NCBI GenBank assembly: GCA_951799445.1
Contig: OX637290.1
Coordinates: 5,582,501-5,646,500, forward strand
Length of the DNA stretch: 64,000 nt
From: Pseudisothecium myosuroides
Taxonomy: Eukaryota; Streptophyta; Bryopsida; Hypnales; Lembophyllaceae
Reading direction: 5' to 3'
In this document: piece by piece, positions 1 to 17,919 of the stretch
Position numbering within the stretch: the stretch's first letter is position 1
Layout: each line of letters opens with the position of its first letter
Program-made: the position numbers and the translations under genes
Notes under the pieces: generated by a model
The model's input: only the letters and a program-made list of their open reading frames with translations
Database searches by the model: none
What the model was told of the DNA's origin: nothing

Positions 1-7
1 AATCACC

Positions 8-691
8 ATGGACAAGGATAAAGGTGTACCTAAGCCATTTAGACTAATTCCGGTTGGGGAAACCTCAGCAAGGGAGGTGCAGCTTGACTTGACCAAGGAG
101 GATCTTCAAGGTGTGTTGGAATCCTTCCAAACCCTTCACATAGGATCCTCTAGTGACTCAGCTTCACAATCTCAACCTCAAGTAGCAGCTTCACCGTTTG
201 TTCTTGTACCATTGGTCCGTTATCGTTTAGAAATTCAATCGTTTAGGCATCCAGGCACCAAAGTGTTGGGTCCAAAAGCCATCAAGTTTTGGACTCAACA
301 ACGTGGGGTGCGCCTTATTCGAGACTTGAGATCGGAGGTGCCCGTGATAGGAGCACCGTTGAGCCGAACAAGGGGACGAGTGGAGGAAGGCAACTTGGTA
401 ATTCCACAAGTGGCGGTGGTGTTGAAGAACGAGGGACAACGCCAAAAAGTGATGAGACACACTTTTAGAGGGGCAATTCAGTTGCCAAACTTCTCGTTGA
501 TCTTCACCGAATTTCGAGCGGGAGATTACTTGTTTCACACCACGTGGCAGTGGGAACAAGGCTGGTGGCTGGAAAGGGCATCGAGTTTGTGGGATTCATT
601 GACTCTACGTGTCCTTGACACGGAGATACCACCCACGATTTACTGTGAGGCTATAGAGGGCACTCATGAGGCATGGCAACTTTATGTGTAA
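8..691 (+). pseudogene. N-terminal ORF of the retrotransposon, unknown function
   Basis: This ATG-initiated frame encodes 227 residues directly upstream of gag. It is in the same reading frame as gag and is separated from it by two stops (TAA 689-691, TAG 701-703) only 12 nt apart. I recognise no domain. The sequence is moderately basic, with a Trp-rich stretch near residues 180-195. It may be the N-terminus of the Gag polyprotein (matrix-like) cut off by mutation, or a separate small ORF. The same-frame arrangement, and the lack of an early ATG in the gag frame, favour the first reading. It belongs to the element, not to a host gene. Confidence 0.6.
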
Positions 692-703
692 GTTGACTTG
701 TAG

Positions 704-2578
704 GTGAAACTGGATTCACTTAGGAGACCGGGTTACACTAGGAGTGGTACTCCATTTGCCAGTGACACCGTTTCAGAGTTAACTAGCGGTGTCGAGCCAG
801 TGCAATCGCGAAGTCAGAGACATTTCTTGGGTGAGAGGAATCAAAATGATTTCGTCCAAGAATCAAGCAAAGAACAAGCAGATTGGGTGGAAGATACTGA
901 GCGTAGTAAGGGAGGAGAATTACCAGTCACTACAGTTGACCACGGGGTGAGATTTGTTCAAAACAAATCTATCTTCGCTTGGGACGAGATGACTACGCCA
1001 TATGAAGGCGTGGATCGGGGAGTCAGGCGGTTTTCCGGTGCCAATGGCACCATGGAAGTGGACGACTTCCGTAGGGAGTTCACTATGTGGTGTGAACTTC
1101 AAAAGTCACGAAATGCCAGTTTCAATCCATACATGGTATGGAGGGCACTGTTTGGGTGCCTTGAGGGAGCACCATTGGCAGATTACGGGGAATTTGAGCT
1201 TGCTCATTCCACGGAGATCCTAGCTTGGCGGGATTACTACGCTCCACACTATACAGACGTTTGGGGAGGAGGATCCATCGCCATAGTACCTGCTAGCAGA
1301 GGAAAGAAGGAAGAAGGGGGCGCAAGCACGGAAGGTCAAGAGGCTACCGTGACTACGAGCCCAGTGCCAGTGGCTAACTCGCCTCTCTTCAACCCTACGG
1401 CTCAATTCTTTTTGCAGCTGCAGCGGGATTACTACGGGCAAAGGGCCGATAAGATGAAATCACTTCGCACGTTTGCACGTGGCAGTGATGAGTCGTTGCG
1501 AGAGGCGCATTCAAGGCTCAGACGGTTGATATCCGCCACCCAAGGAGTGACGGAGCAACAAGCTGTTCAACATTGGTATAGCATCTTGGATAAAGAGCTA
1601 AAAACTCTTGTCCGAGGTGAGGCCTTGAGGTTAGGTATTCCACCAACCTTGAGGTACGTTTTTGAGACCTCCGAGAGGATTGAGATCAATCTCTTAGAAG
1701 AAAAGGCGGCCATGGGGTTCTTGCGTAAGGAGGAGAAACCGCAAGAGAAAATCAAGATGGCTAAGGCCAGTATTCCAGCTAATACCGGAGACACTGACAT
1801 GGTATGCTTCAACTGTGGGGGCGTTGGCCACAGACGACGGGATTGTAAGAAGAAATCCACCAAGGAAGCTACCAAGTCTGGAGCATTTTGCTCTGGTTGT
1901 GGGATCAAGGGCCACGACGAGGCCAATTGCTGGAAGGTTCATCCTGAATTGAAGCTTAAGAACACGAAGGAGGCGAAGGGAGGTGATTCCAAAGAGGCTA
2001 AGTCTACAGGAGGAGAGAAAAAGTCATGGAAGGCACACTTTATAGAGTTGGAAGCTAAAATGGCGGCTATGAGCTCAACCACCACCACGGGGGCTACTTC
2101 ATTTTACGCGGAGGGAAGTGACCATATGTTGTGTGGCATGGTAGATGCTCAAGGCATGTCCACAGACGCCTATGCCTTGACTAGAGGCAAGACCGTGGTG
2201 CAAGACCCGCCACGAGGAGCGAGTTCGGGATTGGATCCACAGAGAGGTGAAGCCAACCGCCAAGCTAGACTACCAGAGTCATTCGTGTTGGAGGATATGG
2301 TGCCTATTACGTCCATGATTCTACCACAGCGGAATTCAAGCAGTCGACGGGTTGCCCGGGCTCTACGTGGGGATGGACAAGGTACAAGTGTTCTCTTTGA
2401 CGCAGCTACCGCCATTTGTCAGGCTCCTTTGTTCACGGCATCCATGATCTCTCAGGCACAATTTAGTGCTGCTACAGTTTTCAAATTGGTTGCTACCCTA
2501 TGTGAGGACGGCGCCTCAGCATCGGTAGATTTCATGGAAGTTGTGCTTGAGCCACAGGCGACGATTGGCAGTAATTGA
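704..2578 (+). pseudogene. gag: Gag (nucleocapsid) region of the retrotransposon
   Basis: The 624-codon frame carries a central Gag-like capsid region, with a Q/L-rich helical stretch around 1400-1700. Two zinc knuckles follow near 1804-1935: CFNCGGVGHRRRDC and CSGCGIKGHDEANC, both matching C-x2-C-x4-H-x4-C. These bind RNA during packaging. The frame begins with GTG right after a TAG, and its first in-frame ATG comes only near position 989. Initiation therefore probably lay upstream, in the 8-691 frame. It ends at TGA 2576-2578, but the same frame stays open into the protease, so this stop is more likely a mutation than a natural Gag terminus. Confidence 0.85.
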
Positions 2579-3300
2579 ACTGATGCAGACGAGCTCTTAG
2601 CAGTCGCTGCTCGTGTGAAGACCATGCCAGCGCGTCCGGCAATAGAGGGGTCCTCCATTACCCCAGGAGTAGTGGTATTGGACAATTCTCAAGGCATTTT
2701 CCAATTGGTTGGGCCCAAAGGGAGAGTTTTTGCGCCTCGTCGGGTACTATTAGATTCCGGTGCACAACCCTTGATGCTGGGAGAGTCAGCAATTGAAGGC
2801 TTGGATTTGACCGAGGACAAGTTGAAAACGTGTCCGTGGACGATTAGTACCTCTATGGGAGGGACGGAGCAAGCAAGTGGCATCACGAGGGGCGAAATGA
2901 CATTACGTCTGCGCCATGATGATGTGGAGAATGCTAGCTTCATGAAGGTGAAGGCCATAGTTACGGAGGCCAAGTCGTATGACGTCTTGGTTGGGGCTAT
3001 GGTGTTTACCCTATGGGTTTCACTTTGGACTTCTGGGAAGAGACAACATACTATAGACCGGGATGGCAAGCAGGAGATGGGCGTAGAACTCAACTGCCAG
3101 CTTGTTTTATACGAGTTCTTACCGGCAATTTGGCTGATCTCTATTGTTTTGCTGGACTTGAGGGTGAGAAGCAACCATGGTTTAAGGAGGATTTCGAAGA
3201 TCCTCTTGTTGTAGCTTCAACAGATTTCACCAAACCCCATCATCAGGAGGGTGAAGATGCTGGGGGCGAGTTGTACCAACCCGGCATAGAAGCTGCATAG
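2579..3300 (+). pseudogene. Retroviral-type aspartic protease region (frameshifted)
   Basis: After the TGA at 2576 the frame is open and encodes a pepsin-like retropepsin core with the catalytic motif VLLDSGAQ (about 2743-2766). Downstream is a YDVLVGAMV segment typical of the end of Gypsy proteases. At about 3005 the plausible protein continues one frame over (from about 3013, MGFTLDFWEETTYYRPGW), which points to a 1-nt deletion. That second frame runs to TAG 3298-3300 and then continues straight into the methyltransferase region. The protease would cut the polyprotein. This copy cannot make an intact one. Confidence 0.82.
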
Positions 3301-4557
3301 AAGACTACCGTGGGTTTGCAAGACGCTGCCAGCAAAGTTATCCAGGAGGTGTGGCAACAATCGTTGTTGCCAAAAGAAGATGAAGTGGTTGCAGGCGAGG
3401 ACAATGAGGGTCCTCCTTTGCACACTTCAACAATCAGGTGGAAACCACCAGACGAGGGAATAACTCTTTTAGAGTTGTTTGGTGGCATTGGCACCGGGTT
3501 GGCGGCTGTATTGCAGGCGGGCATGAAAGTGAAGCGTTATGTCTATGTGGATAACAATGATATGGCACGGCAAGTAGCCAAGCGCCATGCTCGGCGGTTA
3601 TGCCGTGCATTTCCATTGTTGTTGAACACGGGCGCTATCACGACCGCATTTTCTGCATTGCCAAGCGATATTTCACTAATATCACTCCAAGATATTGTTA
3701 AATTGGGGTCAGTGGATCTAGTTATCGCGGGATGGCCATACCAAGGTATGTCTATGGCTGGCCACCAGAATGGATTAAAGGACAAGCGTTCTTCAAAATT
3801 CCATGACATGGTGAAGATATTGCGATATGTGCAAACATCTCAGCGGCGACCGCCGGGGTACATCATTGAGAATGTACCAGTGGTTGGTACATCGCGGACC
3901 CGCACGCTTGAAAGTCTTCATCATGTGCACAGTGTGCTTGGGATTCCTGTATTGATAGATGCAGCGGCGGTCGGGTCGAGAGCTCACAGACCACGATTGT
4001 GGTGGACCAACTTGGCGCCACCTGAGCTACTACATACAGCAATTCCACGGATTGAGCGACCTGACGTATACGTGAAAGATATCTTGGAACCTCACCGATC
4101 ACCCCGACGTGTTTATCACGACGAGCAAGCACCACTTGCGGTAGTGAATCGTAAGGATGAGCCACGAAGAGCTTTATCAACATTGGTAAGCTTTTCCAAG
4201 TCCTATGCCTTCAAGGACAATGGGCCTGAACTAGTGTGGGATGCCCGCACTGAAGAGATGGTGGAATCTAATGCGGATGAGCGAGAGCGGGCTATGGGAT
4301 TCCAAACGGGCATCACTCAGGCACCTGGCATCACCGAGTTCCAAAGGCGATATCTCATTGGTCAGGCCATGGATTTAAATTGTCTGTCGTGGATTGTGTT
4401 CCTTGTGACTACCGAGCAGAAGCGATTAGCTTCCACACTGGATGGTCACTTGGGTTTCCATGAGCTGCAAGAGGCTATGAAACCATCAAGTTCTGGGAGT
4501 CCACACTTAATGGTTGGGGGCGTAGACGCCTGTGCAGCTCATCCATGGGACATATGA
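3301..4557 (+). pseudogene. Cytosine-5 DNA methyltransferase domain inside the polyprotein (catalytic Cys changed to Tyr)
   Basis: The domain spans about 3460-4420. Motifs appear in the unpermuted order. Motif I is LLELFGGIGTGLAA (SAM binding). Motif IV is AGWPYQGMSMAG. Motif VI is IIENV. Motif VIII is SRAHRPRLWWTNL. A motif X-like segment reads LIGQAMDLNC. The spacing, and segments such as PVLIDAAAVGSRAHRPR and ERAMGFQTGIT, look more like DNMT3 than the circularly permuted plant DRM enzymes. The nucleophilic Cys expected after Pro in motif IV is Tyr here (codon TAC, 3739-3741), so this copy should be inactive. It lies between protease and reverse transcriptase in the same frame as both, bounded by TAG 3298 and TGA 4555. 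An active relative would add methyl groups to DNA carbon-5 of cytosine, perhaps on newly copied element DNA (inference). Confidence 0.92.
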
Positions 4558-5346
4558 AAAAGCAACACATTTTTCACAACTCCAAGGCCAAGTTCAAGCA
4601 GTTGGGAGCAATTGGCTAAACCAAGGATGGAGTTGGAGGAAGACGTGGAGAAGCTTTTCTTGGAGGAGCACATATCGGATCAAACAGAGGAGCTATGGCG
4701 CTTGAGCCAAGTGGAAGAACAATATGGTATGGTGGGTGTGGAGCAAGATGAAGTTGCTCCAGCTGGTGTGCAATAGCAACGAAAGATAGAGAGAGCTGTT
4801 TCAAAGGAAGAACGGAAGGAAGTGGTGACCAAGGAAACTTGGAAACCATTAGTAGGCCTGGAGGATGAAACAGAGAGGGAACATGAACAAGAGTTCCTCA
4901 AGAGTTATGTGGATTGCTTTGCATTTAGTTTGAAGAACTTGGGAGTCCTTAGGGGACAACAGATCCGTATAAACTTGACGGATGATGCGCCAATTTATCG
5001 CAAACCGTACAAGTACAGTGAGGCAGAGCGCAAGATGATCCAAGACCGAACTAAGGAGTTGTTGGAGGCCGGGTTGGTAGAGTTAGCGCCTTCGGACTGT
5101 GAGTATGCATCAGCAACGGTTATGCCATCCAAAAAGGATATTTTCGGTAATTGGACCGAGAAGAGGATGTGTGGAGATTATCGGAGAATCAATAAATTCA
5201 CGAAGTCCGACCGTTATGCGATGCCAACACCGGAGGAGAACTTTGACGCCATTGGCCACGCCAAAGTATTTAGTACTTTGGATCTTCGGTCGGGATATCA
5301 CCAACTTGGCATTCGAGAAGGTGATAAAGGAAAGACGGCGTTTTAG
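4558..5346 (+). pseudogene. pol: Linker and N-terminal half of reverse transcriptase
   Basis: The frame continues from the methyltransferase through an acidic Glu-rich linker, is broken by TAG at 4774-4776, and enters reverse transcriptase. Typical fingers and palm sequences are visible: IYRKPYKYSEAE, LLEAGLVELAPSD, RMCGDYRRINKFT and VFSTLDLRSGYHQLGI, the last holding the first catalytic Asp. The frame stops at TAG 5344-5346, just after GKTAF. The next codons continue RT without loss. In related Gypsy elements a Trp commonly follows KTAF, so TGG to TAG is the simplest explanation. Confidence 0.88.
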
Positions 5347-7929
5347 GGGATTGATGAGGATGGAAAGGACCGCTTGTATCAGTGGAAGTTCCTTCCTTGT
5401 GGGTTGAAAAATGCACCCGCTGAGTTTCAAAGGGTCATGGACCGTATCTTTGCGGGCTTGGAGTTTGTGAAATGCTACATTGATGACATCATTGTCTATA
5501 GCATGAATCAGAACCAACATAGAGCTCACTTGAAGGAGGTTTTTGCTAGACTGAGACTCCACGGCTTAAAATTGCATCCGAATAAATGCAAGTTTTATTA
5601 TAACCGTGTAGAGTACTTGGACCACATGATATACCCTGGTGGATTAAGTGTGGTAGCTAGTAAAGTGGAAGTGATGGTTTCTATACCAAGGCCGAAGGAT
5701 GTGAGTAGACTACGGGCGTTTTTGGGGTTGTGCAACTACTATCGGAAATTTGTGAAAACGTTCAGTGCCATTGCAAAGCCATTGACCATGCTGACAAGGA
5801 ATGATCAACCTTGGATGTGGGGAGATGAGCAAGAGGCCGCCTTCACGCAATTGAAGGAGCGTTTATCATCGGCACCCATCTTGAGGAGGCCGATTCCTGG
5901 TAGAACTTACCAGTTGCACACAGATTGGAGCTCACTGGGGATTGGCGCAGTGTTGACACAAATGGACGATGATGGCAAGGAGTTTGTAGTAGCTTATGTC
6001 AGTCGCTCCAACAACAATGCGGAGGCACAGTACAGCTCATACGAGGGAGAGTGTTTAGTAGCGATTTGGGCCATTGCTCACTTTTGTTGTTATTTATATG
6101 GCAACAAATTTCTATTGGTGACAGACCACCAACCGTTGAAGTGGCTCATGGAGTCTGACAAGCTTACTGGTAAGCTTGCACGATGGGCCTTGATGCTAAT
6201 GGAGTATGACTTCAAAGTTGTATACCGTGCCGGTTTGGTGAACATGGATGCGGACGGCTTGAGTCGCAATCCAAATCTTAGCCAAGTGGACTCCACGGGG
6301 GCTCGTTGGCACGTGGAGGAGGGAAAAGATTCGTTACCAGGGTGGCATGCTGCCACCTATTTGAGTTTGTTGACAATGACTGGAGACGTCACCGAGGAAG
6401 CCATTGTGGCCAAGATGGATGCGGATGGTGGTGAAGAGTCTGGGGGCGCCAAGGACATTTTCGAGGATGGAGATGTGATGAAGTATTTGAAGCTTGGTGA
6501 ATTGACATCCACAGTGTCAGCCAAGGAGAAGGACCGGATCCTACAACGAGCCAAGAGGTCTGTATGGGAGGGGGATCACTTACTTCGTATATGGCCAGAT
6601 GGCAACAAGAGGGTGGTACCGGCGCCTCATGAGAGAGTGAAGTTAGTTATGCATGCACACGAGGACTTGGGGCACTTTGGAGTGCGAAGAACTCACAGCT
6701 TGCTGCAGATTCACTATTGGTGGCAAGGCATGCAAACGCAAGTCCAACAGTTGGTAGCCAGATGCACGGTTTGTGATAGAGTGCGGGCATCATTTAATGC
6801 CTCAATGCCTCAACTACAACCATTGCCAATCATGGGATTGGGCTATAGGTGGAGTTTGGACTTTGCAGGACCATTGCCAGTAACACCACGACATAACAAG
6901 TATGTATTGGTGATGATTGAGCACTTCTCCAAATGGATAGAGTTGGTGGCGTTGCCTGACAAGTTCAGTGAAGGGGCCGCTTACTCATTCTTAGATCGAG
7001 TGTTGAGTCGCTTTGGAGTTCCAGCCGAGGTGTTGACTGACCAAGGGCGTGAGTTTTTTGGAGAATTTCAAGCCTTGTGCGAACAAGCAATGATTGATCA
7101 CCGCACTACTTCACGGGATCATCCCGAAGCAGATGGATTGGCGGAGCGCATGGTGCAAACCGTCAAAAGGGGACTTCGCAAGTATAATTTGAAGAAGGGC
7201 CATCATAGAGATTGGGACTTACAACTACCGTGGATAGCAATGGGCTATCGGTTTAGTAAGCAAGCATCTTTGGCTTCTTTCTCACCCTATTATTTGTTGT
7301 TTGGTCGCCATCCGGTTTTACCGATGGCAATCAAACAAGATGCAGACAAGATATTGGATCACATGGATGATCCAGACACGTGGGCTCGAGTATGCGAGCA
7401 ACGTGCGGAATTATACAAGAGGGTGATGCCCATGGCTTTGGAGAACCTTTCTATTGCGCAGCATAGAGACACTCTGCGTTATGCCACGATACGAGGAGGA
7501 GGCTATAGACCTCAAGTGCGACGTTTTCTGCCCGGTGATTATGTCTATTTGCAGCAAACGGCACCTACCACCCTTGACGTGACTGCAGGGCGTATTATTC
7601 TACGAGTGCGTGAGGTGCTTAAGTCGGGAGTTTTGCTCTTGGAGGGTCGTGATGGCAGGATCTGGAAAGATCACACGCGCAATTGTGCGCCATGTCATTT
7701 GCCACACATTGATGGACGTATTGATTCCAGCGGGTCACGGATTTCGGCTGGGCTGAAATGCGTGTTGTGTAGAAGCGCCAAGAGCGCTGCCACTATGGTA
7801 TTGTGCGATGTTTGTTCGACTGGGTGGCACATGGATTGTTTGACACCGCCATTGCAAGAAATTCCGGCGGGTCGGTGGGTTTGTCCCAAATGTGTGCCGG
7901 GGCATGGACAAGCATCTTCATCTTTGTAG
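5347..7929 (+). pseudogene. pol: Pol C-terminal part: RT core, RNase H, integrase, PHD finger
   Basis: This is the longest intact stretch. RT continues with YQWKFLPCGLKNAPAEFQ and the catalytic box CYIDDIIVY near 5473-5500. RNase H shows HTDWSSLGIGAVL, YEGECLVAIWA and VTDHQPLKWL. Integrase has the zinc-binding HHCC region (HEDLGHFGVRRTH through CTVCDRV, about 6655-6780), then the catalytic D,D,E within WSLDFAGPL, LTDQGREFF and GLAERMVQTVKRG. A GPY/F-like basic region follows (about 7520-7700). The C-terminus, where chromoviruses usually carry a chromodomain, holds a PHD finger. The frame ends at TAG 7927-7929. It would drive copying and insertion, but it has no N-terminal half because of the 5344 stop. 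Confidence 0.93.
7759..7893 (+). other. PHD zinc finger at the C-terminus of integrase
   Basis: Residues match the C4HC3 PHD pattern: CVLC, then CDVC ten residues later, then HMDC, then CPKC, with a Trp (RWVCPKC) two residues before the last Cys pair, as in histone-tail-binding PHD fingers. Plant and animal PHD fingers read histone H3 tail marks. In an integrase this position suits steering of insertion to certain chromatin, as chromodomains do in chromoviruses. That role is inferred. Confidence 0.9.
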
Positions 7930-8537
7930 GGTTTTCCATTGGGTTCTCGTTGGTTCTTCGGAGAAGGCCACTGAGTTCGCCAATGTGAAAGGGGCTTCGA
8001 CACCGGCGAAGGGGGCGAGTAAAGGAGTGGTTACCAAACCACTTGCTACATCTGGTATACTCTTGTATCATGGGTGTTTAATTTCTTTACTTTGCTATGG
8101 ATGTCGCTGATGGTTAGTGTTTGTGATGATAGGATGTTTTTCGCATTTCTTTCATTACTTGCAGGCTTTGCCGTGATTGTGATATACATCACAAGTCACG
8201 AGGCGTTTTCCCTATGACCACGGTATTCACCGCTAGTCAGGAGCTATTGGACCTTGGTGTGGTTAGGTTACTAGCCAATTACAAGGTCTATTGTTACTTA
8301 TGGCACGCTTGCTCTCATGTTGGCTCGATATGATCTTGGCACGATGTGTTTGTGCACGACATCAACAAAATCATAGTAACAACTAAGTCTCAAAGGGTGC
8401 GAAAGGGAAAGAATTTTGCCACCAAAGAACAGCTTCAACTTTGTTGAAGCTACCTTCACATTTTATAGGATCCCATCTAGAGGAATGGTCAAAAAAACAA
8501 GGCATTTTGGAGGTAAATTGCCATTTACTACAACAAA
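7930..8537 (+). other. Retrotransposon 3' noncoding region, possible 3' LTR
   Basis: There is no coding signal. A purine-rich run (gcgaagggggcgagtaaagg, about 8006-8025) could be the polypurine tract that primes plus-strand synthesis. Sequence after it would then be the 3' LTR. The LTR boundaries cannot be set, because the 5' LTR is outside the window and no matching direct repeat is visible. Confidence 0.4.
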
Positions 8538-8759
8538 CACTGTAAGAAACCCGCATTTTAGGTAACAAGCCCCAATTTTTTTAAACTAATTTTGGATGAT
8601 GTCAATGTTGACAATCCAATGTTTTTATGTCAACATTAATGTTATGTTGGACGTTTTTGTTGACATAAAAACATTGGGTTGTCAACATTGACATCGCCTA
8701 AAATCCATTTTAAAAAATTGCCTAAGGCTCATTACCTAAAACATGGGTTTTTTATAGTG
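8538..8759. mobile_element. CACTA-type foldback MITE, 222 bp
   Basis: The ends are inverted: the left end CACTGTAAGAAACCC and the right end (reverse complement) CACTATAAAAAACCC. A long internal inverted repeat (gatgtcaatgttgacaa / ttgtcaacattgacatc) means nearly the whole element folds on itself. It is flanked by AAA at 8535-8537 and 8760-8762, the 3-bp target duplication expected of CACTA elements. It has no coding capacity. Confidence 0.82.
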
Positions 8760-15364: not shown

Positions 15365-16734
15365 CTTATACCGGTATGAAGTGCTAGTCTTGATAGTAGA
15401 GTATACTGGGGTATAATTCATTTACAAATTTTCCAAACAATTTTCACTAGAAAGTTCAACAACTTTAGGAAGCTCTAGCATGCTCAAAAATGAACCAATT
15501 TTGGAACCACAAAATGCATTGCAATTGCAATGATGTGCACTTCAACTTCATAAAAATGATATAACAATTTGAATTGCTTTTATATATTGTCTACCATTTC
15601 ATAAAGAACCTTTGGAAGATAGTCAAAGATTTTTTGCATTTGGTGAAGAACAAGCAAGAAATCATACAATCGATTCAAGTGGTATGAAATTAAGTATCTC
15701 TAAAGCAATTTTGAAGATTCATTTCTTATATGTACCATTGAATACAAGTTGTAATTTTCACAAATGTTGGCAACACTAGATAATACATAGTGTACATTAG
15801 AAAACATCAAACTCTTTGTATGATTCTCAACTACATATGTGTGTTTGTATTGATGATAAAGTAGACTTCAGTGTGATTCCAACACAATTCAAAATTCAAA
15901 ATTCCGTTCAATTTTGAGCATACACGGGCCTCCCAAAGTTGACCTAATCTCAGCAAGATGCAAAAATTCGTAAATGAACTGGTAAAAAATATCTGCTCTA
16001 AAGACATTTCTAAGACTGTGAAATATCCTTGAGAAGAGGTGTGTGAATCCTTATAATGTGATTGCTCTCTTCATGACCTTCATAGAAGTGAAATTTGCAA
16101 TTGAACCTATACGAGATCAGTTTTGGGGGAGCAATACACCCAATGGCTTGTCCAGTCGTATCCCCTTGTTTTGGAGGCAGTCCACGGGATTCTTTCAAAG
16201 GCCTGGAAGGACATAGAGTCACACAACTGTTTGTTTAATTCCATTGAAACCAATACGTCCTGGAAGATCAAAATAATCCTGAAACATGATCAGTTTTCAT
16301 CAAAAGCCAGTGTCTCTTAGTACCCAGCCGCCACCGCAAAGGAACAAGCCACTCTTTAGAATTTGCAGATGAAGTGAACCATGATGAACTTCATGAATCG
16401 TTTCACAGTTTTTTCGAGAAGCCGACAACAATTGAACAAGAACTGAACTTGATTGAACACAGCTTGGCGAAAGATGTGTATACTCACGTCCTGTGAGATC
16501 AAAAGGAATGCAGCACTGAATCAAAAAGAATGCATTTGCTCACTCTTGATTGATCTGCATCAAAAAATTTGTACCTGAATTTTGTTCCAAGACTGAGAAA
16601 TTATCGGCACATGAAATGCAAACCAACGAGTGCACCAAGAATGTCTTTGTCGTAATTTAAAACGAACTCGCAGCAAGTATATATCGAGGATAACAAAGTT
16701 GGAGTCTTTACCGACCTTACCGAGGTGAGCGTGC
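15365..16734. other. Intergenic, upstream of the SIS gene
   Basis: AT-rich up to about 16.0 kb, then more balanced. A TATA-like sequence (gtatatatcgagg, about 16676-16688) lies roughly 55 bp before the start codon of the next gene and may be its core promoter, implying a short leader. I see no other features. Confidence 0.5.
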
Positions 16735-17919
16735 ATGTGTGCAAGAATTTCAGCAATGGCGTCCCCAGTTATGGTGCAAACCTCGTTATCCTTCATGGCC
16801 ATCCAAGCGTTGGCCGAGATTCACCGCGTCTTCAACCGCGCCGAGCGCGATAAACAGGATCCCTGTGTGCCGATCGTGAAAGAGATCATGAAAGCCAGAG
16901 ACAAGGTGATTGTTTTGCACGGACTTGGGAGAGAGGGTCTCATCATCCGCGGCTTCGCCATGCGCCTCTTCCACTTAGGGTTACGCAAAGTGCACATGTT
17001 CGGCGACATGTGCACGCCGCTGCTGAAAGCCGGGGACCTCCTCATTGTGTCTAGCGGACCCGGGTGGCCCAGCAGCGTCGACCCCATCATCGGCGAGGCG
17101 ACAGCGTCAGGTGCCAGGGCTTTGGTCATCACCGCCAAACCCGACGGCGCCGCGGCGGCACTCGCCACCACGGTTGCAGTCGTCCCCGCGCAGACGATGG
17201 CGGATCCCGACTTCCCCGGCGAGGGAGAATCGGCTGATGTGCACCCGGAATGCCCTATGATGGTGGGAGGGAAAATGCCGTGGCAGCTTCCGCACAGCAA
17301 TCAGAGGGCATCCATGGTGCCTGCTGGGGATGCTATGGCGGCATCAAACCCGAGCAAGGCCAAACTCTCTGCAAAACTTGACGAAATGATCGCGAAAGCA
17401 GATTCGGACAAGACCCGAGGCTCCCAACGAGGCTCCCAAGTGCGAGGCTCGCAGATTGGAGATGCAGATTTGGACAAGGCCCGAGGCTCACAACGAGGCT
17501 CACAAGTGCGAGGCTCGCAGAGTGGAGATGGAGATTTGAAAGCAGGAATCACGCTGTACCCACCCGAGCCTGCTCGATTTGCGGTGACGGACAACAAGAT
17601 TTTGCCCATGGGAAGCGCATACGAGGGCGCGCTCTTCATCCTGTTCGAGATTGTGGTGTACACGCTGCGGGAAAAACTGCAGGAGACGCTGCCAGTCATG
17701 CGCGGGAGGAATACGAACTTGGATCACTTCCCGCCGGAGCACGCTTGCGGACCGCCGCCGCCATCGCCACCGCCCACGCCGCCGGACGAGTGCGGCCGCT
17801 ACCACAAACACGCGCCTACGTCCGACTCGGGGCTGCCGCATATGCCCTTTGTGGAAGAAGAGCCTGCGGCCGCCGCGCAACTCGCCGCTGCTGCGGCCAA
17901 ACTTTCGGTAAAAAAGTAA
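16735..17919 (+). CDS. SIS-domain protein resembling 6-phospho-3-hexuloisomerase, 394 aa, single exon
   Basis: Residues about 25-160 form a sugar isomerase (SIS) fold: KVIVLHGLGREGLIIRGFAM, RLFHLGLRKVHMFGD, DLLIVSSGPGWPSSVD and ARALVITAKPDGAA. The closing SIS helix comes much later, at about residues 287-323 (LPMGSAYEGALFILFEI, then RGRNTNLDHF), like the C-terminal end of microbial 6-phospho-3-hexuloisomerases. In between is an insert of about 120 residues, including two copies of a 22-residue repeat rich in RGSQ. The C-terminal tail has a Pro run and an Ala-rich stretch. The enzyme family isomerises hexulose 6-phosphates. Activity here is unproven, because the insert could alter the active site. 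The gene is GC-rich and intronless against AT-rich neighbours, so old bacterial transfer or retroposition is possible. Another in-frame ATG lies at 16756; start choice is uncertain. Confidence 0.85.
   Translation: MCARISAMASPVMVQTSLSFMAIQALAEIHRVFNRAERDKQDPCVPIVKEIMKARDKVIVLHGLGREGLIIRGFAMRLFHLGLRKVHMFGDMCTPLLKAGDLLIVSSGPGWPSSVDPIIGEATASGARALVITAKPDGAAAALATTVAVVPAQTMADPDFPGEGESADVHPECPMMVGGKMPWQLPHSNQRASMVPAGDAMAASNPSKAKLSAKLDEMIAKADSDKTRGSQRGSQVRGSQIGDADLDKARGSQRGSQVRGSQSGDGDLKAGITLYPPEPARFAVTDNKILPMGSAYEGALFILFEIVVYTLREKLQETLPVMRGRNTNLDHFPPEHACGPPPPSPPPTPPDECGRYHKHAPTSDSGLPHMPFVEEEPAAAAQLAAAAAKLSVKK
17407..17538 (+). repeat. Two in-frame copies of a 66-bp coding repeat in the SIS gene
   Basis: The unit from gacaagacccgaggctccca to ggagatgcagatttg occurs twice in tandem and encodes D-K-x-RGSQRGSQVRGSQ-x-GD-x-DL. 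Each unit itself contains three RGSQ-like submotifs, so the stretch probably grew by nested duplication. Confidence 0.92.

What the first reader, a model, noticed from the sequence alone, without database searches (positions are those of the whole stretch)
3301..4557. DNA methyltransferase inside a Ty3/Gypsy polyprotein
A cytosine-5 methyltransferase with motifs I, IV, VI, VIII and X lies between protease and RT in the same frame as both. It was therefore presumably made and processed as part of the polyprotein, not as a separate gene. The unpermuted, DNMT3-like order differs from plant DRM. DNMT-bearing Ty3/Gypsy elements are published for charophyte algae, so this is a new or extended case depending on the host. 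An element that writes its own methylation could hide from, or mimic, host silencing.
Basis: partly seen in the sequence, partly recalled or inferred. Interest (0 to 1): 0.93.

Follow-up and report, generated by a model that had tools for sequence, protein, structure and literature searches.

The report
Moss retroelement with its own methyltransferase
In what is likely a moss genome, a family of jumping genes carries its own DNA-methylation enzyme in front of a stop signal that is likely leaky, so the enzyme would be made together with the coat protein and would mark the element's own DNA; the copy in this window has lost the cysteine that such enzymes need.

Summary
Three corrections. (1) This copy is dead: motif IV has Tyr where 16 of 16 fetched sister copies and 74 of 79 relatives have the catalytic Cys, and stops and a frameshift break it. 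(2) Protease and DNMT are not in one frame in this copy, though they are in kin. (3) The DNMT is not simply part of Pol: in F1, F3, F4 and L010 (the last two close kin) it ends the gag-protease frame at a UAG followed by CAA YY, a tobamovirus-like readthrough context, with RT behind it. So the enzyme would be made at Gag level. Ends are split direct repeats with 4-base target duplications, the odd repeat type published for KnitGypsy-Dnmt3 of a charophyte. DNMT is under purifying selection about as strong as gag and RT. I read it as a land-plant extension of KnitGypsy-Dnmt3 with a newly seen expression layout; its likely job, untested, is methylating the element's own cDNA.

The parts
1..8361 (+). 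Ty3/Gypsy-type element, cut by the window start (left end A1 at G000:C4:5579904, 2,597 bases upstream)
704..2575 (+). gag frame with CCHC zinc knuckle (PF00098), frame 2
2579..3030 (+). aspartic protease region (PF13650 E 2.6e-4, below its curated cut-off), frame 2; frame changes near its end, approximate
3301..4554 (+). DNMT3-like C5 cytosine methyltransferase, frame 1
3739..3741 (+). Tyr codon at the catalytic Cys of motif IV (WPYQG)
4771..4782 (+). CAA UAG CAA CGA: conserved stop between DNMT and RT; sister copies mostly have CAA UAG CAA CCA, a tobamovirus-like readthrough context
4777..7926 (+). RT, RNase H, integrase (H2C2 and rve), in frame behind the stop; broken by a further stop at 5344
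7759..7893 (+). PHD finger at the C-terminus of the integrase frame (PF00628 E 6.8e-11)
8018..8361 (+). terminal repeat B (LTR-like TG at 8028, CA at 8360-8361)
8362..8365 (+). 4-base target duplication TCAA, matched by TCAA directly before A1

Best explanation
The window holds a decayed copy of a Ty3/Gypsy-type retroelement of a likely moss genome whose gag-protease reading frame, in kin, ends in a DNMT3-like cytosine methyltransferase, set off from RT-RNase H-integrase-PHD by a UAG stop that is likely read through, so that the enzyme would be made at Gag level, packed into the particle, and would methylate the element's own cDNA. [quoted passage not shown] Inferred: that the stop is read through at a low rate, that the protease frees the enzyme, and that active copies methylate cDNA so that new insertions arrive already marked like silent host DNA; the PHD finger is predicted to bind histone H3 tails and to steer integration. 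Deamination of methylated cytosines, whoever placed the methyl groups, would explain the G-to-A lesions of this copy.
For: Layout in kin: L010 has gag-protease-DNMT open, UAG, RT-RNase H-integrase-PHD in frame. Stop and context: UAG in 14 of 16 F1 sister copies, CARYYA after the stop in 15 of 16, both in 13 of 16; UAG CAA UCA in L010 and F4, UAG CAA CCG in F3. CAATAGCAAYYAARG occurs 61 times in the genome against 2 for the reversed control; 36 of 98 DNMT matches have it 1,000-1,250 bases downstream. Twenty relatives end at this place. Selection: pN/pS DNMT 0.33, gag 0.35, RT 0.28. Active site: 74 of 79 relatives keep Cys, 16 of 16 sister copies. DNMT3 fold. Deamination bias 147 of 202 against 22 in the opposite direction.
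Against: No readthrough, enzyme activity or methylation was measured. In the paper the K. nitens enzyme gave no activity in yeast, called inconclusive. P0092 has Tyr in place of the stop; P0087, P0216 and the Riccia model P0110 run from DNMT into RT without a stop. 25 of 61 pattern matches have no DNMT match near. The deamination bias can come from host methylation alone and is not confined to CG. pN/pS pairs are not independent. F4 and L010 are close kin (85% at RT), so the conserved stop is not four independent cases.
Confidence: 0.58

Rival explanations
1. The layout is right but the enzyme's main target is not its own cDNA: it acts in trans on host or rival element DNA, or on RNA, or serves as a nucleic-acid binding part of the particle.
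For: De Mendoza et al. discuss RNA and host-protecting roles and leave the role open (section read); nothing here fixes the target.
Against: Motif IV, VI and VIII residues of catalysis are kept in most relatives, which a mere binding role would not need.
Confidence: 0.2
2. The UAG is a plain end of the first frame: RT-integrase-PHD is made by reinitiation or from a spliced or shorter RNA, and no readthrough happens.
For: Splice-like GTAAGT...TTGTAG letters stand at another frame boundary (window 688-703); readthrough was not measured.
Against: ORF2 stays in the same frame behind the stop in L010 and F1, and the six bases after the stop fit the readthrough context in 15 of 16 F1 sister copies.
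Confidence: 0.17
3. The DNMT is a passenger without a use, caught once and drifting; the window copy simply shows its decay.
For: The window copy has stops, a frameshift and no catalytic Cys.
Against: 98 element-type matches, pN/pS 0.33, the same place behind the protease in F1-F4 and L010, and relatives in liverworts, Sphagnum and Closterium.
Confidence: 0.05

Closest known systems
KnitGypsy-Dnmt3 of Klebsormidium nitens (de Mendoza et al. 2018, PMC5890265)
   Same: LTR Gypsy domains, unpermuted DNMT3-type enzyme in the element, DIRS-like repeat structure, purifying selection on the DNMT (passages); K. nitens integrase-PHD proteins are relatives of this integrase (P0126, P0154)
   Different: Other host (likely moss); enzyme on the Gag-protease side of a conserved UAG, whereas the paper says it lies in the Pol polyprotein ORF; PHD finger, a word that its main text does not hold; several families and about 100 places in one genome
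SymbioDIRS-Dnmt3 and SymbioLINE-Dnmt of dinoflagellates (same paper)
   Same: Retroelement with a captured cytosine methyltransferase; SymbioDIRS enzymes methylate CG in yeast
   Different: DIRS and LINE elements, stated in the paper to be unrelated to Gypsy; tyrosine recombinase in the DIRS ones; here DDE integrase
DNMT3A/DNMT3B catalytic domain
   Same: Motif order and fold
   Different: About 20-25% identity; no ADD or PWWP domain in the frame; Tyr at the catalytic Cys in this copy
Tobamovirus-type leaky stop
   Same: UAG followed by CAR YYA; in F1 also CAA before it, as in tobacco mosaic virus (recalled, no call)
   Different: Between a DNMT and RT of a retroelement; not assayed
Chromodomain-bearing Gypsy elements (chromoviruses)
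   Same: A histone-reader type domain behind integrase
   Different: PHD finger instead; no chromodomain among the Pfam matches

Membership tests
Ty3/Gypsy (Metaviridae) | protease, then RT-RNase H, then DDE integrase | tested here: met
   Pfam RVT_1, RT_RNaseH, Integrase_H2C2, rve in that order; protease match weak
Ty3/Gypsy (Metaviridae) | two ordinary long terminal repeats | tested here: not met
   A1 at the left, B at the right, or B1-A2-B2; no B before A1 in the four copies read
Ty3/Gypsy (Metaviridae) | RT places with Ty3/Gypsy in a tree | not tested
   Domain order and Pfam only; I therefore write Ty3/Gypsy-type
KnitGypsy-Dnmt3 lineage | Gypsy domains with an unpermuted DNMT3-type enzyme | tested here: met
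KnitGypsy-Dnmt3 lineage | DIRS-like repeat structure | tested here: met
   Split direct repeats; compared with the paper's figure legend only
KnitGypsy-Dnmt3 lineage | one clade with the K. nitens DNMTs | not tested
   No K. nitens DNMT sequence was among the listed hits
DIRS elements | tyrosine recombinase, no target duplication | tested here: not met
   rve integrase found and no recombinase among Pfam matches; 4-base duplications in four of four copies read
DNMT3 enzymes | DNMT3-type fold and motif order, I before IX/X | tested here: met
   host DRM permuted
DNMT3 enzymes | catalytic Cys in motif IV | tested here: not met
   Tyr in the window copy; Cys in 16 of 16 F1 sister copies and 74 of 79 relatives
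Tobamovirus-type readthrough | UAG CAR YYA with an in-frame continuation | tested here: met
   13 of 16 F1 sister copies, F4 and L010; one base off in the window and in F3
Tobamovirus-type readthrough | measured readthrough | not testable with these tools
   needs a reporter assay or ribosome profiling

The most novel reading that the evidence does not exclude
A Gag-borne DNA methyltransferase: since early in streptophyte evolution these elements have packed a DNMT3-like enzyme into every particle at Gag rather than Pol dose, behind a tobamovirus-type leaky UAG, so that cDNA is methylated before integration and each new copy arrives already silenced, while a PHD finger on integrase chooses the chromatin; host-like epigenetic marking is thus part of the particle itself.
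Probability: 0.35. Interest if true: 0.82.

Novelty: new variant of a known kind. Interest (0 to 1): 0.62.

Why it matters
It carries the DNMT-bearing Gypsy kind from a charophyte alga to a likely moss, with relatives among liverwort, Sphagnum and Closterium database proteins, and it makes the open question of what such enzymes are for testable: the enzyme stands on the Gag side of a stop that looks leaky. Laboratory mosses and liverworts can be transformed and have DNA-methylation mutants (recalled), so self-methylation by an element could be measured directly.

Tried and rejected
Ordinary LTRs within the window: none found; explained later by split repeats with the left end outside the window. 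A second copy of the element elsewhere in the window: no match. Reading the stops at 689 and 701 as lesions: rejected, both stand in 15 of 15 sister loci that cover them. Reading the UAG at 4774 as a lesion: rejected. A later host-gene insertion: rejected, protease and DNMT share one frame in L010 and in copies of F2, F3 and F4. The viral-contig scan with the DNMT alignment gave 9 loci at 24-43% identity over short stretches; the one I looked at, L001, holds a phage-type C5 methyltransferase by its motifs, and the set was dropped. Of 5 genome-contig loci only L010 was used; four Streptomyces loci at 27-33% were dropped. A tree with host DNMT3, MET1 and CMT could not be made for want of full sequences; two rotated host DRM pieces served as a far outgroup in a quick tree that warns of long branches. 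DRM and DNMT1 chains did not appear in the VIA-align rows, which excludes nothing. A protein search of the own genome did not complete (calls below), so copy numbers rest on the Pfam search, which calls its own counts lower bounds.

Full report

Host. An intronless SIS-domain gene at 16729-17916 has the moss Ceratodon purpureus as its nearest named relative, 81% identity, among 14 hits, with unnamed proteins up to 88%. I infer a moss. The assembly has 387.9 Mb in 222 contigs, and the window is C4:5582501-5646500.

Copies. PF00145 gives 114 matches in the own genome; 98 have a profile start (31-66) like the element's, and I sorted out the 16 others, which include bacterial-type, DRM and MET1-like genes but also further element copies. 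I fetched the first 20 of the 98 in score order, 10 kb each: 16 are window-like (F1; 87.5-95.4% at the DNMT) and 4 belong to a second family at about 45% (F2) with no RT match in the stretch. Two more families, F3 (L046, L048, L051) and F4 (L047), came from the sorted-out rows. In F2, F3, F4 and L010 the DNMT follows the protease in one frame. All these copies were chosen by their DNMT, so they cannot tell how many related elements lack it.

This copy is dead. Motif IV reads WPYQG instead of WPCQG. All 16 F1 sister copies have Cys. Of 120 relatives listed, 79 cover the column: 74 Cys, 3 Tyr, 1 Phe, 1 gap. Four premature stops of the G-to-A kind (at the end of gag, just before and just after the DNMT, and in RT) and a one-base shift between protease and DNMT break the frames. 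In the DNMT piece of 15 F1 rows (window included; L037, a duplicate, and L031, deleted there, left out) 147 of 202 private differences are C-to-T or G-to-A against 22 the other way and 33 transversions; L023 alone gives 56 of the 202. Per site the rates are CG 0.27, CHG 0.29, CHH 0.21. Deamination of methylated cytosine in all contexts would leave this; it does not tell who methylated.

The stop before RT. At 4774 stands UAG between the DNMT linker and RT, in frame with both. Among the 16 F1 sister copies UAG stands in 14 (the two UAA copies are identical in the DNMT piece), CARYYA follows the stop in 15, and both hold in 13; the window has CAACGA. Of 3,818 stop triplets in any frame of the F1 stretches 15 are followed by CARYYA, which equals the number of junctions that have it. 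L010, a 9,285-base contig filed under a cyanobacterial MAG but by content an element of this kind, has gag-protease-DNMT open, then UAG CAA UCA, then RT-RNase H-integrase-PHD in the same frame; its 127-base end overlap fits a repeat-collapsed assembly. F4 has UAG CAA UCA and F3 UAG CAA CCG. CAATAGCAAYYAARG occurs 61 times in the genome against 2 for the reversed pattern; 36 of the 98 DNMT matches have one 1,000-1,250 bases downstream on the same strand, 20 of them at 1,104; 25 of the 61 have none of the 98 matches upstream. Twenty of the 120 relatives end here, found by suffixes that I chose after seeing them. Against: P0092 has Tyr in place of the stop and runs on into RT; P0087, P0216 and the Riccia gene model P0110 run from DNMT into RT. 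The context is the tobamovirus type as I recall it; readthrough itself is untested.

Ends. Sister copies end at a 345-base repeat B (window 8018-8361; LTR-like TG...CA from 8028). In 5 of 16 F1 sister copies the right end is B1-A2-B2, with A of 325 bases; B1 and B2 are 98.3-100% alike, so some insertions are young. A also stands at the left end of the four copies whose left end I read (window, L024, L030, L031), with no B before it. The ends TGTCATG and CACGACA are near inverted, and each of the four has a 4-base target duplication (read). So this is a DDE-integrase element with split direct repeats. De Mendoza et al. say of KnitGypsy-Dnmt3 that its repeats are those of a DIRS element while its domains are those of Gypsy (figure legend), which ties the two together. 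L010 carries the same B-A junction.

Selection. Pooled pairwise pN/pS among F1 copies, window and L037 excluded and gappy rows dropped (13 to 15 copies): gag 0.35, protease 0.40, DNMT 0.33, linker 0.24, RT 0.28, RNase H-integrase 0.40, PHD 0.44. The pairs share history and include decay after insertion, so the figures are rough; the DNMT is kept about as well as gag and RT.

Relatives. A quick tree of 42 rows puts the window with unnamed proteins P0001, P0005, P0008 and P0028, then with P0029, P0064 and P0072, then with Calypogeia, Marchantia and Sphagnum proteins, while F3 and F2/F4/L010 form another clade; several branches are long and the root is not safe. F1 to F4 in one genome and relatives in liverworts, Sphagnum and Closterium speak for an old association. 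Another layout exists: 23 of the 120 listed integrase-PHD proteins carry a DNMT-like stretch, and in P0183 it lies between RNase H and integrase; Volvox and Pleodorina proteins show weak, degenerate versions.

PHD. The C-terminal PHD is nearest to CHD4, PHF12 and PHF21A. As I recall, PHDs of this group read H3 with unmethylated K4; no binding residue was tested here. No chromodomain is among the Pfam matches of the frame.

Literature. Searches list no paper whose title or shown abstract reports a DNMT-bearing retroelement of a moss, a stop codon between DNMT and RT, or its PHD finger (one search listed 19 of 20, one search listed 15 of 36). I saw the listings; of PMC5890265 the abstract, passages and sections 10 and 11; of PMC6338049, PMC12344493 and PMC10538959 passages. 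PMC12344493 repeats that DNMT3 members in retrotransposons are reported from streptophytes and dinoflagellates. Supplements, subscription papers and preprints were not seen.

Verdict. Known kind, new variant: a DNMT-Gypsy in a likely moss with the enzyme on the Gag side of a likely leaky stop.

Noticed in passing
L027, L028, L029, L041; G000 contigs C49, C217: F2: gag-protease-DNMT frames of about 1,000-1,120 aa with no RT match in the 10 kb read; pairs on C217 and on C49 stand 73,138 bases apart, so some are segmental duplicates rather than insertions.
   Followed up: partly
P0183, P0207, P0170, P0190, P0232; Volvox P0196, P0220; Pleodorina P0192: Second layout in metagenomic, alga-like elements: DNMT-like stretch in front of integrase-PHD, behind RNase H in P0183; motif IV often WECQ.
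   Followed up: partly
P0128 (Marchantia polymorpha Mp_7g09570): Annotated 612-aa protein with a DNMT-like stretch and a C-terminal PHD but no rve match by Pfam: a relic or a host-kept gene.
   Followed up: no
window 2-703: A further open frame of about 230 aa before gag, ended in the sister copies too by two in-frame stops 12 bases apart within GTAAGTTGACTTGTAG; use unknown.
   Followed up: partly
window 8573-8720: Hairpin of two 70-base arms, 84% complementary, just behind the element: MITE-like insertion.
   Followed up: no
L010 (CADCWO010000201.1): A plant- or alga-type retroelement contig filed in a cyanobacterial MAG of a genome database: likely contamination.
   Followed up: partly
G000 contigs C180, C81, C110: C5 methyltransferases in long frames, bacterial-type by their motifs in C180 and C81 (C110 not read): possibly bacterial contigs in the assembly.
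   Followed up: no
25 places listed: Exact CAATAGCAAYYAARG matches without a DNMT match upstream: chance, decayed copies, or elements without the DNMT.
   Followed up: no
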